From NCBI GenBank assembly GCA_028281405.1, contig JANQKA010000045.1, positions 1 to 38,609 on the forward strand: a stretch of 38,609 nucleotides of DNA, read 5' to 3'. This DNA comes from Hasllibacter sp. (GTDB lineage Bacteria > Pseudomonadota > Alphaproteobacteria > Rhodobacterales > Rhodobacteraceae). Shown piece after piece: positions 22,363 through 32,942 of the stretch. Position numbers and translations under genes: made by a program. Below the pieces are notes generated by a model. It did no database searches. It saw nothing but the letters and a program-made list of their open reading frames with translations, and had not been told where the DNA came from. Positions within the stretch are counted from its first letter, which is position 1. Every line of letters begins with the position of its first letter.

Positions 22363-22854
22363 TCAATTATCGAGATACCATTGGGACTTGTCTCGGCCGC
22401 AAAGGAACACGATCTCAACGCCATTTTCCTCAAGAACGCTTTCTTGCTCCACCCAGTCGGAATCCGTAGCGACGTGGATTTTCGATCCGGATTTCAGGGC
22501 CACAGCGATAAATTTCCGATCACTCCGGTCGAATCCGGAATCAATTATCGCTTGAGGGACATCCTCATATTCTCCGTCTCCACGCTTTTTTACGGAAATC
22601 CTTCGTACCTTTCCACCATAGTTGCGGGCCACTAGACGGAAGAACCTGTCACCGACCCGGGGCCGTCCGCTGAAGTTCAGCCTCTGTCGGCGATATTCTT
22701 TCAAAATTTCCCCGGCATCATCCAAGAAAATTATTCCATTGCTGATTGCCTCATGAAGAGTTATTGTGGCCGATATCACGCAGTCCGGGTTGGCCTCGCC
22801 ACTCAAATTATTGGCAATGACGGGAACATTTGTATCGATAACAAAATTTGTCAC
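22363..22854 (-). CDS. PIN-domain ribonuclease-like protein
   Basis: The 163-residue protein starts MTNFVIDTNVPVIANN, the classic PIN strand with first acidic residue Asp7. Further acidic positions fit the metal site: Glu49/Glu53 (DAGEILKEY), Asp112 (SDRKFIAVAL) and Asp131/Asp133 (ATDSDW). PIN domains usually cleave RNA with Mg or Mn, as VapC-type toxins or effector nucleases. Its ATG overlaps the stop of the upstream ATPase gene (ATGA), so the two are made together, and no small antitoxin gene is adjacent. The region is visibly richer in A and T than the rest of the window, suggesting transfer. Confidence 0.85.
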   Translation of the reverse strand: MTNFVIDTNVPVIANNLSGEANPDCVISATITLHEAISNGIIFLDDAGEILKEYRRQRLNFSGRPRVGDRFFRLVARNYGGKVRRISVKKRGDGEYEDVPQAIIDSGFDRSDRKFIAVALKSGSKIHVATDSDWVEQESVLEENGVEIVFLCGRDKSQWYLDN

Positions 22855-24215
22855 TTTATGCGCCCCTCCCTTTTGCGCTCAAGCTCCTTAATTTGAGCCA
22901 AAGCGACATCGCCGAATGCGTCTCCCATGAATTTATCCGGCCAATTGAGAATGTTTCCGTAGGGATCCATCTCGAGTTCGGTGATAGTGCTCTCTCCGTT
23001 TTGGGCATCGCAGAAATATAGTCGCACGGAATCGCTCTTGATTTCATCTTCGGCTATACGCCTCTGCAGACGAAGAAGAAGGTGTTCGGAGTGACTTTCG
23101 AATACAATTTGAACATTACGGTGGAAAGCGGCCTGTATCATGACATCCGCCAAAGCCGATTGCGCCAATGGATGCAAATGGAGTTCCGGTTGCTCGAGAA
23201 TGACCGTCGCACACTCGGGGACATATTGGAGCAAAGTAATTACGGGAAGGACTTGTGAAACTCCGAAGCCGACGTCCGGTAATAGGACTTTAGTTGATTT
23301 TTTTCGGGTTTGAACATGGACCTGCCAGAGATTGGATCCGGTTTTGATCTCCGTGACTTTGAAGCTGTGGAGCAATTCCATTTCCCTAAGCAAGTGTGAA
23401 ATCATTTCTTGAAAACTCATGTGACGCGCATTCTGTTTCAGGTTTCTTGTTTCCTTGTCTCGCGTCGCGGCAAGTATGGAATCGATGGTTTTTTCACCGC
23501 GCTGCCCAACATCGGTCGGGCGGGAACGATTCCAAATATAGGTTCGCTCTGGGTGCTGGCGGAGCGGTCCCAGGTAGAATATATTGTTCATTTCCTTTTC
23601 ATAGGCTGTTTCAAGGTCGGAAAGGAACGACGCGTTTTGAAAATTGGTTCGGACCTCATCGGGAAAGGCGTAGGATTTAATTGGACCCGGCAAGTCCCTT
23701 TCCCGTCCCCCGTTTCGCTTGAATTCGAAATTCGATATATTTGAATCAGTCGTTATGTGAGACACTTCAAATCCCGACTTTCCTTCTTTCAATGAAAATT
23801 TGGATTCACCAAGTCGATATGATAATTCGGTTGATTTGGGAGCGCCATTCCAATAGGAATTGGATGATTTTATGTTTAGGGAACTGCTATTGGAAATTAT
23901 GGAAGATGGGAATTGGGCGACGTCCATCACGGATAGTCGCTCATTAAGCTTGAAGCCCAAATTCCACTCTACGCTCCGGTCTGTTTCATGCCGGTGAAGA
24001 GCTTCCGAAAATGTGCCTAGGGAGACCACATCTCCGTTGAGTTCAAGGGAAGTCGCCCGATCTGTGGCGTCCTTGGTTTGCTTCAGCATCAGAAGGAACT
24101 GAAGTATGCTCGTCTTTCCCGACGAGTTGGTGCCGAAGAGTCCGGTGATTTGGCCAAACTCAACCCGCGCCTGTTCCCAAGCTTTGAAATTCTGAAATTC
24201 CAGCACTTTGAGCAT
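22851..24215 (-). CDS. AAA/ABC-type ATPase, OLD/DUF3696-like
   Basis: The 454-residue protein starts MLKVLEFQNFKAWEQARVEF and has a Walker A GTNSSGKTS (residues 28-36). A long helical and variable middle follows, with Walker B ILEQPELHLHPLAQSALAD near residue 330 and the H-loop FESHSEHLLLRLQRR. The C-terminal ILNWPDKFMGDAF segment is typical of DUF3696-type ATPases. Such SMC/OLD-like ATPases act as sensors or activators in many phage-defence systems (for example PARIS, Septu and Gabija components). Here the partner is a PIN nuclease. GAGG lies 8 bases before the ATG, and a dyad lies directly upstream. Low GC and AT-rich codons mark it as an island gene. Confidence 0.88.
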   Translation of the reverse strand: MLKVLEFQNFKAWEQARVEFGQITGLFGTNSSGKTSILQFLLMLKQTKDATDRATSLELNGDVVSLGTFSEALHRHETDRSVEWNLGFKLNERLSVMDVAQFPSSIISNSSSLNIKSSNSYWNGAPKSTELSYRLGESKFSLKEGKSGFEVSHITTDSNISNFEFKRNGGRERDLPGPIKSYAFPDEVRTNFQNASFLSDLETAYEKEMNNIFYLGPLRQHPERTYIWNRSRPTDVGQRGEKTIDSILAATRDKETRNLKQNARHMSFQEMISHLLREMELLHSFKVTEIKTGSNLWQVHVQTRKKSTKVLLPDVGFGVSQVLPVITLLQYVPECATVILEQPELHLHPLAQSALADVMIQAAFHRNVQIVFESHSEHLLLRLQRRIAEDEIKSDSVRLYFCDAQNGESTITELEMDPYGNILNWPDKFMGDAFGDVALAQIKELERKREGRIK

Positions 24216-25434: not shown

Positions 25435-26811
25435 TCAGACCAACCGTCCCCAAAGATCGTATTCGCCAGCCTCGTCTACTTCGACCGTGACGAGGTCGCC
25501 GGGCGAAAGGCCTTCTAAGTTTTCGTCGATGAAGAGGTTTCCGTCGATTTCCGGGGCGTCGGCCATCGTGCGGCAGGTGGCGAGATCCTGATCGACCTCG
25601 TCGACCAAGACCTCGACCCTGCGGCCCACCTTGGCGGAGAGCTTCGCCTCCGAAATATCCCGGGCTTTCTCCATGAAGCGGTGCCAGCGATCATCCTTGA
25701 CCTCCGGCGGGACATGGTCGGGCAGGTGGTTGGACCGCGCGCCTTCCACGTCCTCGTAGCGGAAGCAACCCACGCGGTCGAGCCGCGCCTCGTCCAGCCA
25801 GTCGAGAAGCGTTTGGAATTCCTCCTCGGTCTCGCCGGGATAGCCGACGATGAAGGTGGAGCGCAGCGCGATGTCCGGGCGGATTCCGCGCCACGCGGAA
25901 ATCTCCTCGAGCGCCCTGGCCCCGGCTGCGGGGCGGGCCATGCGGCGGAGCGTGTCGGGATGGGCGTGTTGGAACGGGATGTCGAGATACGGCAGGATCT
26001 TCTCATCGGCCATCAGCGGAACCAATTCGCGCACATGCGGATAGGGATACACGTAGTGCAACCGGATCCAGACGCCGAGAGTTCCAAGGTCGCGCGCGAG
26101 ATCGAGGATCGGGGCCTTCGATCCGCGTTTTTTCCAATCGGTGCCGTAGGCGGAGGTGTCCTGGCTGATGATCAGCAATTCCTTGACCCCCGCTTCGACC
26201 AACCGCTCGGCCTCGCGCATCACCTCGTGGGTCGGACGGGAGGCGAGCCGACCGCGCATCCGGGGAATCACGCAGAAGCCGCATTTGTGATTGCAGCCCT
26301 CGGATATCTTCAAATAGCTGTAGTGGCGCGGGGTCAGGCTCACGGCCTGTTCGGGAAGAAGGTCCAGGAACGGGTCGGGTTTCGGCGGCACCGCCTCGTG
26401 GACGGCGTCCAGCACGGCCTCGTACTGGTGCGGACCCGTCACGGCGAGAACCGCGGGATGCGCCTCGGTGATCCGATCCGGCTCGGCGCCGAGGCACCCG
26501 GTCACGATCACCCGACCGTTTTCGGAAAGGGCCTCGCCGATCGCTTCGAGGCTTTCGGCCTTGGCGCTGTCGAGAAAGCCGCAGGTGTTCACGATCACCG
26601 CGTCGGCGCCCGCGTAGTCGGGCGAAATCGCGTAGCCCTCGGCCCTGAGGCGCGTGAGGATCCGCTCGCTGTCCACGAGCGCCTTCGGACACCCGAGGGA
26701 AACCATCCCGATCCTGGGCCGGCCGGGACGGTCGATTACGGAGATGCTCGCCTTTGGCGCGCGATCCGGGCGCGGAAAGACCGGAGCTTCGGGGATGGGC
26801 GGCTCACGCAT
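25435..26811 (-). CDS. rimO: Ribosomal protein S12 methylthiotransferase
   Basis: This radical-SAM enzyme adds a methylthio group to the conserved Asp of ribosomal protein S12. The 458-residue protein shows the N-terminal MTTase domain Cys residues ([33 protein letters not shown]), the radical-SAM cluster motif [13 protein letters not shown], and a C-terminal TRAM domain. The motif [12 protein letters not shown] separates RimO from MiaB. The start chosen (26811) is the ATG of [10 protein letters not shown]; an in-frame ATG at 26868 adds 19 basic residues without family resemblance. The gene follows the GcrA-like gene on the same strand after 150 bases. Confidence 0.94.
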
Positions 26812-26961
26812 GGGCGTGGGCCTGAATCGCCGGATTTCGCCGCGACGGGCCAGACAAGAGGCTTCCACCGCGTCGATGCCACGTCGCGGCGCCGATTGAC
26901 GCGGCGGGACGGGACGCCACCGGGATTCGCGCGAACGGAATCCGTGCGCGCCGGTCGGCGT

Positions 26962-29670
26962 TCACCGTCGGCGGTCCCGGCGCGGAGCGGGCACTTGGAA
27001 AGCGACGCCGGCGTGCGCCTCGCAATAGGGTTTGCCCTGCTGGGTCGGCAGTCCGCAGAACCAGAAATCCGGAGTCGCCGGATCGCCCACGGGCCATTTG
27101 CAGGTGCGTTCGGTGAGATCCATAAGGCCGATTCTGAGCGAGACTTTCTCCACCTCGCTCACCCGGGCCAGCGCTTCGGCGCTGACCTCGTTGGCGGAAG
27201 GCTGCGGCGGCAGCGGTTGACCGGCCGGCACGATGTTCTTGCGATAGGGATTCACCCTTCGGAAGGGGACGATGCGGGCCTCCTCCCGCGCTGGCTGTTC
27301 CGTGGTTTTCCCGCCGGCGGGAACCGCGGCTTTCGTTCCGCCCGCCGCCTTCTCCTCATTCGCGGTTGTTTTCTTCCGCTTTGGTTTCGCGGCCTTCGGT
27401 TTCGCGGCCTCCTTCCCGCCCGAATCCTTCGTCTTCTTCGCCGGGGCTTTTCTCCGACCCGGCTTTTTGGCTTCGGTGGCGGCGGTGTTTCCAGCGTCGG
27501 GGGAATCGACCTTTTCCGCCGCGGTCTTTTTCCCTCCGGAGGTTCCGGCTTTGGGCGCGGGAGATTTTTCCCCGCCCGCATTCCGGGAGGCCGCCGCGTC
27601 GGACTCCCCGCCCGCCGTTTCCGCGTCGTTTCCGGAGTCTGAAGCGCCGCCGCCCTTCGCGGGGGCTTCCTCTCCCCCGGTGGACTGATTCCCGGTCGCC
27701 ACGGAGGCCGAAGCGTCCGGCGTTCCGCGTTCCGCTTCCGCACCGCTTTCCATGCTGGCCGCGACGTTGTCCTGCGACGGGGCGTCTTCGCCGACAGGCG
27801 TTTCTGTGTTCGCGGAGTCGGCGATTCCGATTTCAAGCGCGGTCTCCACACCCGTCTCCGGTACATTGGCTCCGGTCGCTTGGTGTTCCATTCCACCGGA
27901 CGCCTCGGCGGTTTCCCCGCCGGACAAACCGTCATCCGACGACGCGGGGCGTTCACCCTCGGAATCCCCTCTCCCGGCCACCGGAATATCCTCACGGTTC
28001 GGCGCGCGGGCGTCCGGCGCGGCCGCGCAGCTTTCCCCGGCGACCATGGCCTGTTCCCGACCGGGCGCGTGGGCCGCCTGCTCGGCGTCGTCGTCTCGGT
28101 GGAATTCCCGGACATTGATCGTCGGGGAGTTTTCCTCCTTGGAAATTCCAGTAAGTGCGCCGGTATCCATTTCTTCTCCGTGACCCCCGTCCAACGATGA
28201 CACTTCTTCCCGACCCGGCGCGGACGGCCCGGGGGAGGCGTCGCCGCCTTCCCGTCCGGCCCCGCCGGAATCCATCGGCGCGGCTCCCGCGTCTTCGGAA
28301 GCTTTCGCCGGGGCGACCGATTCCTCTTCGCGATTCCCGTTCTCCGCCGCCTGAATTTCTTCCGGGCCGGGCGGGTGAATCTCCGCATCTCCGACGCCGT
28401 CCGCCCCGAACCGGTCCGCATCCTTCGGAGAGGCGTCCTCGGCTTCGGAGTCGCCCGCTCCGGGAATGGTTTCCGCTTCGCCTTCGGGAATCCCGTTTCT
28501 GGCCGCTTGGGCTTCTTCCGGGCCGGGCGGGTGAATCTCCGCATCGCCGACGCCGTCCGTCCCGAACCGGTCCGCCTCCTTCGGAGAGGCGTCCTCGGCT
28601 TCGGAGGCGCCCGCACCGGGAATGGTTTCCGCTTCGCCTTCGGGAATCTCGTTTCTGGCCGCTTGGGCTTTTTCCGGGGCGGGCGGGTGAATCTCCGCAT
28701 CGCCGCCGCCGTCCGTCCCGAACCGGTCCGCTTCCTTCGGAGAGGAGTCCTCGGATTCGGAGTCGCCCGCGCCGGGAATGGTTTCCGCTTCGCCTTCGGG
28801 AATCCCGTTACTGGCCGCTTGGGCTTCTTCCGGGGCGGGATCGCGGGTCGCGGCATCGCCGCCGTCCCGACCCGACCCGACCGCGTCCGTCGATGCGGCG
28901 CGTTCCTCCCGGGATGTCGCCGCTCCGGACGCGGTTTCCCCGATTTCATCCGAATTTTCGCTCACGGTCGCGGAAACCTCCATCCCTCCGGACGCCCCGC
29001 CCTTCGCATCGGCCGCGGTTTTGGCGGCGGACGCGCCCTCTTTCCCGAGGGAAATGGGCTTTCCGTCCCGCGCCGCGGCGGTCCGCCCGCCGGCATCCCC
29101 CCCGCCACGGGCGTCCGACTTCGCCGCGGTGGAGTTTTTTGGGGGGGTGGATCGACCGGCGCCGGCATTCTTTCCACCCCGCCGCTCCGCAGCCTTGCCG
29201 GACCGCTTCAACAACCCCAAACGGTTCAGCTTGCCCATGACCGAGCTGCGGGTCGCGCCCCCTTCGAGGACTTTGGCGATTTGGGACGCGCTTTTTCCCT
29301 CCATCCACATCGAACTTATCAATTCCTGTTCCCGGGACAGGCGGGGTTTCCCACCCGCGTCCGCCTTCGTCGCGCCTTCCTTCCCGGGAGCGCCGGTCTT
29401 CCTACTTTTCGTCGCGCCGTGACCGGCCCCGTCGGCATTCCCGTTCCCCCGGTGGGCGGACCGGGCCGCGCGGGCCTTCTTTCCAGAAGACGCCTCGGAA
29501 TCCGGTTCGTCCGCCTTTTCGTCCCGGTTCGAAAGGCCCAAACGGTGAATCTTGCCTATGACCGCGTTGCGGGTCGCGCCGTCGCCGAGAGCCTCGGCGA
29601 TTTTCGACGCGCTGCTTCCCTTTTTCAGCATGGAGACCAATTTCTTGACGTGTTCATCGGTCCAGCGCAT
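26962..29670 (-). CDS. Giant GcrA-like cell-cycle regulator, 902 residues
   Basis: GcrA proteins (normally about 170 residues) bind sigma70-RNA polymerase and GANTC-methylated promoters in alphaproteobacteria. Here residues 1-47 are a canonical GcrA helix-turn-helix (MRWTDEHVKKLVSMLKKG, then TRNAVIGKIHRLGLS). Residues 109-155 are a second, diverged module (ASQIAKVLEGGATRSSVMGK). Residues 160-711 are low-complexity and acidic, rich in Ala, Gly and Glu, with 52-residue tandem repeats at 285-492. Residues 712-790 are Lys/Ala/Pro-rich like histone H1 (KEAAKPKAAKPKRKKTT). Residues 836-902 are the GcrA C-terminal domain with CKWPVGDP, FWFCGLP and PYCEAH. The frame is unbroken. The start follows a strong Shine-Dalgarno (AAGGAGGG). 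It lies downstream of argDF, an order I recall for gcrA in Rhodobacterales. No normal-sized gcrA is in the window. Confidence 0.88.
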   Translation of the reverse strand: MRWTDEHVKKLVSMLKKGSSASKIAEALGDGATRNAVIGKIHRLGLSNRDEKADEPDSEASSGKKARAARSAHRGNGNADGAGHGATKSRKTGAPGKEGATKADAGGKPRLSREQELISSMWMEGKSASQIAKVLEGGATRSSVMGKLNRLGLLKRSGKAAERRGGKNAGAGRSTPPKNSTAAKSDARGGGDAGGRTAAARDGKPISLGKEGASAAKTAADAKGGASGGMEVSATVSENSDEIGETASGAATSREERAASTDAVGSGRDGGDAATRDPAPEEAQAASNGIPEGEAETIPGAGDSESEDSSPKEADRFGTDGGGDAEIHPPAPEKAQAARNEIPEGEAETIPGAGASEAEDASPKEADRFGTDGVGDAEIHPPGPEEAQAARNGIPEGEAETIPGAGDSEAEDASPKDADRFGADGVGDAEIHPPGPEEIQAAENGNREEESVAPAKASEDAGAAPMDSGGAGREGGDASPGPSAPGREEVSSLDGGHGEEMDTGALTGISKEENSPTINVREFHRDDDAEQAAHAPGREQAMVAGESCAAAPDARAPNREDIPVAGRGDSEGERPASSDDGLSGGETAEASGGMEHQATGANVPETGVETALEIGIADSANTETPVGEDAPSQDNVAASMESGAEAERGTPDASASVATGNQSTGGEEAPAKGGGASDSGNDAETAGGESDAAASRNAGGEKSPAPKAGTSGGKKTAAEKVDSPDAGNTAATEAKKPGRRKAPAKKTKDSGGKEAAKPKAAKPKRKKTTANEEKAAGGTKAAVPAGGKTTEQPAREEARIVPFRRVNPYRKNIVPAGQPLPPQPSANEVSAEALARVSEVEKVSLRIGLMDLTERTCKWPVGDPATPDFWFCGLPTQQGKPYCEAHAGVAFQVPAPRRDRRR
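28195..28818 (-). repeat. Four 156-bp in-frame repeats inside the GcrA-like gene
   Basis: The unit is 156 bp (52 residues). Three units (28351-28818) are nearly identical and the fourth (28195-28350) is degenerate. The word gggaatggt recurs at 28462, 28618 and 28774. The encoded unit contains IPEGEAETIPGAG, SPKEADRFGTDG and DAEIHPP. High DNA identity suggests recent expansion by slippage or unequal crossover. Confidence 0.85.
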
Positions 29671-29696
29671 GGCACCCTCCTTTAACGGGTCCACCA

Positions 29697-30034: not shown

Positions 30035-30961
30035 TCACACGTTGAGGCACCAGCGCATGATCGCCTTCTGCGCGTGCAGACGGTTCTCCGCCTCGTCGAA
30101 GATCACCGAACGCGGGCCGTCCATGACCTCGCCGGTCACCTCCTCCTCGCGGTGGGCGGGCAGGCAATGCATGAACAGCGCGTCCTCCCCGGCCGCTTCC
30201 ATCACCTCGGCGTTCACCTGATAGGGGCGCAGCAGGTTGTGACGCCGTTCCCGCGTGGACTGGTTGTCATGCATCGAGACCCAGGTGTCGGCCACCACGA
30301 GATCGGCGTCCTCGACCGCCTTGCGGATGTCGCGCTCGATCGACACGCCCGCTCCCTTGCGGCGCGCGAAACCCATCGCGTCGGGGGACGGATCGAGCTC
30401 CGGCGGGCCGGCGAACACCATGTCGAAGCCGAATTGCCCCGCGGCGTGAAGGAAGGACGCGCAGACATTGTTGCCGTCGCCGGTCCAGACAACCTTCTTC
30501 CCCGCGATCGATCCCCGGCGCTCCTCGAAGGTCATCACGTCGGCCAGAATCTGACAGGGGTGGCTTTGGTTCGTCAGCCCGTTGATGACCGGAACGGTCG
30601 CGTTCTCGGCCAACTCGCGCAGCGCCGACTCCTCGAAGGTCCGGATCATGACGAGGTCCACGTAGCGGCTCAGTACGCGGGCGGTGTCCGCGATGCTCTC
30701 GCCGTGTCCCAATTGCATTTCCGACCCGCTGAGAACAAGCGTGCCTCCTCCCATCTGCCTCACGCCCACGTCGAAGGAGACGCGGGTCCGGGTCGACGGC
30801 TTCTCGAAGATCAGAGCCGCGATCCGTCCGGCCAGGGGCTGGTCGTCGTCGGGCTCGCCCTTGGGCCTTCCCGCCCGCGCGGCCTTCATGGAAACCGCGA
30901 GATCGATCATCGAGCGGAGGTCGGCGGCGTCGGTGGTGTGTATGTCGGTGAAGTGATTCAT
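30035..30961 (-). CDS. argF: Ornithine carbamoyltransferase
   Basis: The enzyme makes citrulline from ornithine and carbamoyl phosphate in arginine synthesis. The 308-residue protein has the carbamoyl-phosphate motif [14 protein letters not shown] and the ornithine-binding HCLPAH near the C-terminus. Its ATG overlaps the argD stop as ATGA, so the two are translated together. Length is normal. Confidence 0.95.
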
Positions 30962-32139
30962 TTGGCGGCCTCCTCCATCAGATTGGCGGCTTCGTCGATG
31001 AGGGCCGCGGCGGCGTCCACCTCGTCCTCGGTTATGTTGAGCGGGGGCAGCAGCCGCAGGACGTCCTCCGCGGCCGGCACGAGCATCACGCCCGCCTCGA
31101 ATCCCTTCTTCACGAAGTCGCCCGCGGGCACCCTGGACTCCAGACCGAGCATGAGACCGGAGCCGCGCACGCCCGCGAACACCTTCGGGTGGGAGGCGAC
31201 GAGTCCCTCGAGTCTCTGCCGCAGGCGTCCGCCCACGCGCCTGACATGCCCGAGGAACTCCTCGTCGTCGATGATCTCGACCACCTTGGCGCCCACGGCG
31301 CAGGCGAGGGGATTGCCGCCGTAGGTCGACCCGTGGGTGCCGACGACCATGCCCGACGCCGCGGCTTCGGTGGCCAGCACGGCGCCGATCGGAAACCCTC
31401 CGCCGATGCCCTTCGCCACCATCATCGCGTCCGGGGAAACCCCGGCCCATTCGTGGGCGAACAGTTTGCCGGTCCGCCCCACGCCGCACTGAACCTCGTC
31501 GAACACCAAAAGCGCGCCGGTTTCGTCGCAAAGGTCGCGCAGGCCCTTCAGGCAGTGATCCGGCACCACCTTTATTCCACCTTCTCCCATGACCGGCTCG
31601 ATCAGGACTGCGGCGGTTCGGTCCGTGACGGCGGCCCGCAGGGCGTCGTGGTCCGCCCACGGAACCTGGACGAATCCGCCGAGGACGGGGCCGAATCCGC
31701 CGACCATCTTCTCCGCCCCGGAGGCGGCGATGGCGGCGGAGGAGCGGCCGTGGAAACAGCCTTCGAAGGTGACGATTTCGACCCTTTCCGGCGCGCCTTT
31801 GTCGTGGTGGTGCTTGCGCGCCATCTTGACCGCGAGCTCGCAGGCTTCGGTTCCGGAATTGGTGAAGAACACCGTGTCCGCGAAGGTCGCCTCGACGAGC
31901 CTGTCCGCCAATTCCCCCTGGGGTCCGATCTCGTAGAGGTTCGACAGGTGCCAGATCTTCGAGGCCTGTTCCGTCAGGGCTTCGATCAGGACCGGATTGG
32001 CGTGGCCCAGCGAATTGACGGCGATGCCCGCGCCTAGATCCATGTATCGGCGGCCGTCGTCCGCTTCGAGCCAGACGCCTTCGCCTTTGACGAAGGACAT
32101 GGGCGCGCGGGCGTAGGTGGGCATCACGGAGGGAATCAT
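30958..32139 (-). CDS. argD: Acetylornithine aminotransferase
   Basis: This PLP enzyme transaminates N-acetylornithine semialdehyde; the product feeds the argF step after deacetylation. The 393-residue protein has the class-III signature region with [18 protein letters not shown] and the PLP lysine in [17 protein letters not shown]. The start at 32139 is preceded by AAGGTGA; a second in-frame ATG lies 15 bases inside. It is the first gene of the argDF pair. Confidence 0.94.
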
Positions 32140-32942
32140 GGGAATCACCTTGGATGGTCGGAACCCGAAAGCCGGCGAACACGGCTTCCGCGTCGATCGT
32201 TGGAATGTTCGGGCATTGCGGAGCGGCCCCGTCGCGGGGCGCGGCGGGATCAGCGTCGGCGTCGGATGGGACGGAGATCGGTCATGGGGGAGGAATAGGG
32301 GAATCCAATCCACTTGGAAACCCCGAATCGTCTCCATCCCGACGCGCGGGGCGACGGCGGTTTCCGTGCCGCGCGGAATCAACCACGGCCGTCGGATGAG
32401 CGAATCACCGGCGAATCGGAGGCGGACACGCCGCGCCGTCGGTGAAAGGCTTCAGGTCCGGGAATTCGAAGGGACACGCGCCCGCGCCTTGGACACGCCC
32501 GGACGGAATTTGGAGCGGGACGGCCCTCCCGCGCGGCCGTGGCGACGGGACGACGGGCGACGCGTACGGAAACCCAGCGGCCGCGGGGAAGGCATGGGAA
32601 CGGTCCTTCGCTCGGAGGGCCGCCCGCGGGATCCCCCCGTACGCGGGGAAAGCGGAACCGGAGAAGCCAATTCTCGAACTCGCCGCCTGGGATCCCCCGT
32701 ACGCGGGGAAGGCGGTTCGACCGGGCTTCCGGGGCGTTTGGACGGGACCGACCGGGGGAACGGAGAATCCGGGCGCGGCGTTCCGCGACCGGATGAATCG
32801 TTCGGATGATGGATGTCGGATCGTGGGGACGTCCTCGCGCTCCGCGGAGGCCGGCCGGCCCGGAGAGCGGCGCGTTCGATGGTCTATCGATGGAACCCCG
32901 CGGCCGTTCCGCCCTTCGCCGGGATTCCAGGTCCGAGGAACG
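32140..32942. other. Spacer between hrpB and argD with CRISPR-like repeats
   Basis: No gene is supported in these 803 bases; long open frames on the plus strand run on into the antisense of hrpB. The right half holds the CRISPR-like cluster at 32565-32713. The argD promoter must lie near the left end but is not recognisable. Confidence 0.55.
32565..32713. CRISPR. CRISPR-like mini-cluster (two good repeats, one decayed), type I-E-like
   Basis: Repeats end at 32593, 32653 and 32713, exactly 60 bases apart. The two better ones (32625-32653 and 32686-32713) share ATCCCCC(C)GTACGCGGGGAA, with a CCCCG-TACG-CGGGG stem-loop. Aligned to the E. coli type I-E repeat, the first matches about 19 of 29 positions. 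The intervals are 31 and 32 bases with different sequence, the normal I-E spacer size. The third repeat (32565-32593) keeps only GCGGGGAAGGC and scattered matches. There are no cas genes nearby and only 2-3 units, so a chance or unrelated tandem repeat remains possible. Confidence 0.4.

What the first reader, a model, noticed from the sequence alone, without database searches (positions are those of the whole stretch)
26962..29670. A GcrA-type regulator expanded to 902 residues with duplicated DNA-binding module and histone-H1-like segment
Seen: an unbroken frame with a canonical GcrA N-terminus, a second GcrA-like helix-turn-helix at residues 109-155, a repeat-rich acidic middle, a Lys/Ala/Pro segment (712-790) and a complete GcrA C-terminal Cys/Trp domain. 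Known: GcrA is about 170 residues, binds sigma70 through its C-terminus and GANTC promoters through its N-terminus. Inference: two DNA-binding heads on a long flexible, partly basic tether could bridge distant sites or coat DNA, adding a chromosome-organising role to a transcription factor.
Basis: partly seen in the sequence, partly recalled or inferred. Interest (0 to 1): 0.9.

Follow-up and report, generated by a model that had tools for sequence, protein, structure and literature searches.

The report
Two-headed giant GcrA without its methylase
A Rhodobacteraceae bacterium carries a single, roughly five-fold enlarged version of the cell-cycle regulator GcrA with two DNA-reading heads, and its genome appears to have lost the DNA-methylating enzyme (CcrM) that GcrA normally depends on, so it offers a natural case of an epigenetic reader that has outlived its writer.

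Summary
In detail: one unbroken 902-codon frame, on the MINUS strand, 26962-29670, preceded by a Shine-Dalgarno sequence. It has two GcrA DNA-binding heads (residues ~1-49 and ~113-161), about 640 residues of predicted disorder and a nearly canonical sigma70-binding C-terminus. It is the genome's only GcrA, beside rimO as in relatives; 294 of 296 family genera have a GcrA, and none of those inspected is two-headed or enlarged. Both heads share an extra residue and V->A absent from 140 relatives, so the second head is an internal duplication in this lineage. The 'histone-H1-like' part has the composition of the ordinary short linker; the rest is mostly acidic spacer. The new result is the context: the genome lacks CcrM (found in 281/296 family genera) and its GANTC sites are at chance frequency (observed/expected 0.96-1.02, against 0.25 in relatives). 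Methylated-GANTC reading, GcrA's defining mode, is therefore probably gone. Other CcrM-less genera in the family also have diverged heads. Best reading: a sigma70 cofactor freed from methylation, its two weakened heads perhaps compensating by avidity. Chromosome bridging is not excluded but nothing specifically supports it. New variant of a known kind.

The parts
26962..29670 (-). gcrA, 902 codons plus stop (the only gcrA of this genome)
29676..29681 (-). AGGAGG Shine-Dalgarno sequence, 5 nt spacing to the ATG
   Evidence: upstream sequence printed
29524..29670 (-). head 1, residues 1-49: GcrA DNA-binding domain; recognition helix TRNAVIGKIHRLGLSNR kept; invariant W15 is L; R7 is H; one extra residue in the turn (LGDGATR)
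29188..29334 (-). head 2, residues ~113-161: second GcrA DNA-binding domain; keeps MW.EG.SASQIAK; recognition helix altered (N to S, A to S, I to M, H to N); shares the extra residue and V->A with head 1
29335..29523 (-). basic 63-residue linker between the heads
27271..29175 (-). ~635-residue predicted disordered linker, acidic centre (residues ~230-700), basic at both ends
28357..28839 (-). 156-bp (52-residue) tandem repeat, 3.1 copies, 94% match; pS 0.05, pN 0.05-0.06 between copies
27301..27537 (-). Lys/Ala/Pro segment, residues 712-790; same composition type as the ordinary GcrA linker
26977..27258 (-). sigma70-interacting C-terminal domain, residues 805-898; 63 of 69 conserved positions kept
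25435..26868 (-). rimO (downstream neighbour, linkage to gcrA shared with relatives)
30035..30961 (-). argF (upstream neighbour)
30958..32382 (-). argD (class-III aminotransferase) frame; argD-argF are divergent from gcrA in relatives but co-directional here

Best explanation
This is the vertically inherited gcrA of a Rhodobacteraceae lineage that lost the methyltransferase CcrM. SHOWN by sequence: the sigma70-binding domain is nearly unchanged; the DNA-binding head was duplicated inside the gene in this lineage and both copies diverged; the linker grew from ~60 to ~640 residues of predicted disordered spacer; CcrM is not found and GANTC is at chance frequency. INFERRED: the protein still rides on RNA polymerase through sigma70 domain 2, but no longer reads methylated GANTC. 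The two heads, each missing different parts of the ancestral consensus, contact unmethylated promoter DNA weakly and together, on a tether with basic ends and an acidic middle, so that avidity and reach stand in for the lost methyl-dependent affinity.
For: Only GcrA in the genome, at the rimO-linked locus. C-terminal domain keeps 63/69 conserved positions against 33/45 in head 1. Shared extra turn residue and V->A in both heads, absent from 140 orthologous heads. No RAMA/CcrM in the genome, against 281/296 family genera; the best full-length CcrM match is 38% over the methylase domain only, in a protein that ends without the CcrM C-terminus. GANTC observed/expected 1.02 in the window and 0.96 over 100.6 kb of other contigs, against 0.25 pooled over 73 relatives' loci, where it is the most depleted palindrome of the form XYNx'y'. 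The association recurs: seven further high-quality genera without RAMA have GANTC at 0.60-1.09 in the stretches sampled; six of the seven have diverged heads, including the same W15->L in G250. Over the family survey, weak (E >= 1e-43, unsplit) GcrA matches occur in 4/7 CcrM-less against 7/264 CcrM-bearing genera (Fisher p = 5e-5, on counts read off).
Against: The avidity step has no direct evidence. The genome is a 95.8%-complete fragmented assembly, so the missing gene alone could be a gap (the GANTC statistic argues against it). CcrM-bearing G190 and G114 also have diverged heads, so CcrM loss is not the only route. Head 1 keeps almost the entire recognition helix, so GANTC-like specificity may persist without methylation. 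Only one genome carries this form, so selection on the second head cannot be measured. The association treats genera as independent; three CcrM-less genera (G014, G083, G232) may share one loss.
Confidence: 0.55

Rival explanations
1. Relaxed-constraint drift: after CcrM loss the DNA-reading half of GcrA became nearly dispensable; head duplication and linker growth are neutral slippage and recombination products, and the protein survives only as a sigma70-binding factor.
For: Linker repeats show pN about equal to pS; head 2 has lost 16 of 39 conserved positions and head 1 eight; CcrM-less relatives have altered single heads.
Against: Both heads are still predicted to fold with high pLDDT; 902 codons remain open; head 1's recognition helix is nearly intact; the long linker is an outlier in the ~139 kb of this genome sampled, so it is not a genome-wide habit.
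Confidence: 0.27
2. Chromosome-organising role: two heads plus a basic segment bridge distant DNA sites or coat DNA.
For: Two DNA-binding heads on a long flexible tether; basic segments near the heads and at 712-790.
Against: The heads are only ~63 residues apart; the long tether separates them from the sigma70 domain, not from each other. The centre is strongly acidic. No H1 or nucleoid-protein family is hit.
Confidence: 0.08
3. CcrM is present but unassembled, or another enzyme methylates GANTC, and the protein works as ordinary methylation-dependent GcrA with decoration.
For: 872-contig assembly; other N6/N4 methylases are encoded.
Against: GANTC is not depleted in the sampled contigs (0.96-1.02 against 0.25 in relatives), a slow genome-wide signal that a missing contig cannot explain.
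Confidence: 0.08
4. Assembly chimera or frame artefact.
For: Fragmented assembly with a tandem repeat in the gene.
Against: Unbroken frame with consistent codon-position composition; shared derived features in both heads; conserved rimO neighbour. Only the repeat copy number is doubtful.
Confidence: 0.02

Closest known systems
GcrA of Caulobacter crescentus (173 aa; PDB 5yiu/5yiv/5yiw, 5yix, 7ye1)
   Same: Head fold, conserved Cys/Trp sigma70-interacting domain, unstructured linker (domain borders from PMC7403470; Lys/Arg-rich centre from PMC3667746)
   Different: 902 residues; two heads; ~640-residue linker; genome without detectable CcrM
Rhodobacteraceae GcrA orthologs (176-254 aa in the sample)
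   Same: C-terminal domain, rimO linkage, K/A/P linker composition
   Different: Single head, short linker, CcrM and GANTC depletion present
Diverged GcrA of CcrM-less genera G014, G029, G083, G132, G232, G250
   Same: No RAMA/CcrM found, GANTC less depleted, altered heads
   Different: Normal length, single head
MzaA-like sigma70/GcrA-head fusion (L170, L171)
   Same: More than one GcrA head in one protein in L170
   Different: Carries ankyrin repeats and sigma70 regions 2 and 4 in a defence locus; no GcrA C-terminus found

Membership tests
GcrA (PF07750) | Pfam model above gathering score | tested here: met
   146.8 bits, cut-off 26.9, three stretches
GcrA (PF07750) | N-terminal DNA-binding domain of GcrA fold | tested here: met
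   Two copies; heads modelled with high pLDDT; head 2 closest to 5yiu/5yiv
GcrA (PF07750) | C-terminal sigma70-interacting domain | tested here: met
   63/69 conserved positions; matches 5yix by sequence
GcrA (PF07750) | Orthologous genomic position | tested here: met
   rimO downstream, argF/argD beside it, though argDF orientation differs
GcrA (NCBIfam equivalog NF050816) | Equivalog score above 280 bits | tested here: not met
   134 bits; canonical Rhodobacteraceae GcrA were not scored against this cut-off, so the test is uncalibrated
GcrA/CcrM epigenetic module | CcrM in the same genome | tested here: not met
GcrA/CcrM epigenetic module | GANTC depleted, as in the relatives sampled here | tested here: not met
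GcrA/CcrM epigenetic module | m6A-dependent DNA binding | not testable with these tools
   needs EMSA or ChIP
Histone H1-like protein | Match to an H1/HC1 family | tested here: not met
   no such hit in Pfam or NCBIfam; the segment has ordinary GcrA-linker composition

The most novel reading that the evidence does not exclude
GcrA can persist as a methylation-independent sigma70 cofactor after CcrM loss, and here it was rebuilt by tandem duplication of its DNA-binding domain and extreme linker growth: an epigenetic reader converted to an ordinary multivalent promoter reader.
Probability: 0.45. Interest if true: 0.75.

Novelty: new variant of a known kind. Interest (0 to 1): 0.6.

Why it matters
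gcrA and ccrM have been described as consistently present or absent together in Alphaproteobacteria (PMC3885167), and GcrA as an m6A-dependent DNA binder (PMC3667746). This genome and several others in the same family appear to keep GcrA without CcrM. They make it directly testable what GcrA does without methylation, and how a reader protein changes when its writer is lost. The two-headed giant is the most extreme outcome seen.

Tried and rejected
H1 homology: no family hit; composition matches normal linkers. Second head as a generic resolvase helix-turn-helix: HTH_7 scores 17.3 bits, below its cut-off of 23.8, whereas GcrA scores 33.8 bits, over its cut-off. Two-headed GcrA elsewhere: none among 239 head-bearing frames from all loci fetched, apart from the window and the sigma70 fusion in L170 (viral loci included; that profile contained the window's heads, so its scores are partly circular); none seen in the listed matches of 385 class genomes with a double-head query; split Pfam matches in the family turned out to be normal-length genes or contig breaks. 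Genome-wide growth of low-complexity linkers: not seen in ~139 kb. Phage origin: nothing points to it. The full-length protein as a family-wide genome query failed. The head-mismatch rank test used CcrM-bearing references partly chosen as best-scoring GcrA hits, so I rely on the unselected family counts instead.

Full report
WHAT IS THERE. The frame lies on the minus strand, 26962-29670; the plus strand at the same place has stops. ATG at 29670 follows an AGGAGG. The product is 902 residues. Pfam GcrA matches three separate stretches (8.7e-43; individually 61.5, 33.8 and 65.5 bits, all above the 26.9 cut-off). AlphaFold2 folds residues ~1-49 and ~113-161 as three-helix heads with pLDDT mostly above 90 and leaves 165-800 without structure. 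Head 2 modelled alone has the Caulobacter GcrA DNA-binding domain as its best PDB match; its Foldseek E-value is weak, as expected for so short a domain. The C-terminal domain keeps 63 of 69 family-conserved positions, head 1 only 33 of 45.

HOW UNUSUAL. 294 of 296 genera of the family have a GcrA. Extracted family members are 176-254 aa; the split-match cases inspected are normal-length genes or contig breaks. A double-head query over 385 genomes of the class listed no other two-headed match, and among 239 head-bearing frames in all loci, viral ones included, only the window and a sigma70 fusion have more than one head. The own genome has no second GcrA.

ORIGIN OF THE SECOND HEAD AND THE LINKER. 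Both heads carry one extra residue in the turn (LGDGATR, LEGGATR) and A where 99% of relatives have V; neither feature occurs in 140 orthologous heads. One CcrM-bearing relative, G114, has an extra residue at the same place (LGEGVSR) but not the A. The simplest reading is duplication after these changes. The heads then lost different things: head 1 the invariant W15 and neighbours, head 2 the start of the domain and parts of the recognition helix. The linker contains a 52-residue tandem repeat in three near-identical copies with pN about equal to pS, which fits a spacer under little residue-level constraint, although the counts are small. Ordinary linkers in the family are already K/A/P-rich, so the H1-like look of 712-790 needs no special origin.

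THE MISSING WRITER. GcrA's known mode is reading CcrM-made m6A at GANTC (PMC3667746; domain layout in PMC7403470). The CcrM C-terminal RAMA domain is found in 281 of 296 family genera but not here. A full-length CcrM query finds its ortholog in four of five other genomes tested at 73-82% identity (the fifth, G083, also lacks it), but here only methylases of 42% identity or less, the two longest matches covering the catalytic domain at 38% and 32%. GANTC is the most depleted palindrome of the form XYNx'y' in relatives (observed/expected 0.25 over 905 kb) and not depleted here (1.02 in the window; 0.96 over 100.6 kb of other contigs). Together these make a gap in the assembly an unlikely explanation.

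IT RECURS. Seven other high-quality genera lack RAMA. Their GANTC ratio is 0.60-1.09 in the stretches sampled, and six of the seven have visibly diverged GcrA heads; G224 is near canonical. In the full family list, weak unsplit GcrA matches are found in 4 of 7 CcrM-less and 7 of 264 CcrM-bearing genera (Fisher p = 5e-5; counts read off). Genera are not independent: an argD tree places the window's lineage among Roseobacter-type genera, away from a G014/G083/G232 group, with G250 and G224 elsewhere. The tree is one gene with several open forks, so 'several separate losses' is likely rather than proven. G190 and G114 show that heads can also diverge with CcrM present; their GANTC ratios (0.51, 0.65) are intermediate.

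MECHANISM. Shown: family membership, two folded heads (by prediction), conserved sigma70 domain, no detected CcrM, no GANTC depletion. Inferred: it still acts through sigma70 domain 2; it binds DNA without methylation; two weakened heads act together. The acidic centre separates the head pair from the sigma70 domain and may keep the basic parts from clinging to DNA. Rivals are relaxed drift (serious), chromosome bridging (weak: the long tether is not between the heads), hidden CcrM (unlikely) and assembly artefact (only the repeat number is doubtful).

NOVELTY. A new variant of a known kind. The literature found here says gcrA and ccrM are consistently, or much more commonly, present or absent together (PMC3885167); I found no paper on GcrA retained after CcrM loss, within an open-access library that lacks most subscription journals.

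Noticed in passing
L170:3572-6856 (and L171:2825-5260): Proteins fusing ankyrin repeats, sigma70 regions 2 and 4 and GcrA DNA-binding heads (three in L170, one in L171). The L170 fusion sits between a WYL regulator and MzaB/MzaC, in the MzaA position of an Mza-type defence locus; the two genes downstream of the L171 fusion are close relatives of those in L170.
   Followed up: partly
genomes G014, G029, G083, G132, G224, G232, G250 (loci L219-L223, L226, L144): Rhodobacteraceae genera with GcrA but no detectable CcrM RAMA domain and weak or no GANTC depletion.
   Followed up: partly
window 22363-24215, minus strand: Low-GC island (about 47-51% against about 66%) encoding a HEC-03A/HEC-03B candidate anti-phage pair (PADLOC 103 and 555 bits).
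   Followed up: partly
window 30035-32382: argD-argF run co-directionally into gcrA, whereas in relatives they are transcribed divergently from it: a local inversion or rearrangement.
   Followed up: partly
L237 (G114): A CcrM-bearing but diverged GcrA with a one-residue insertion at the same turn as in the window's heads (LGEGVSR); its argF and argD are distant from the window's, so the insertion is probably convergent.
   Followed up: no
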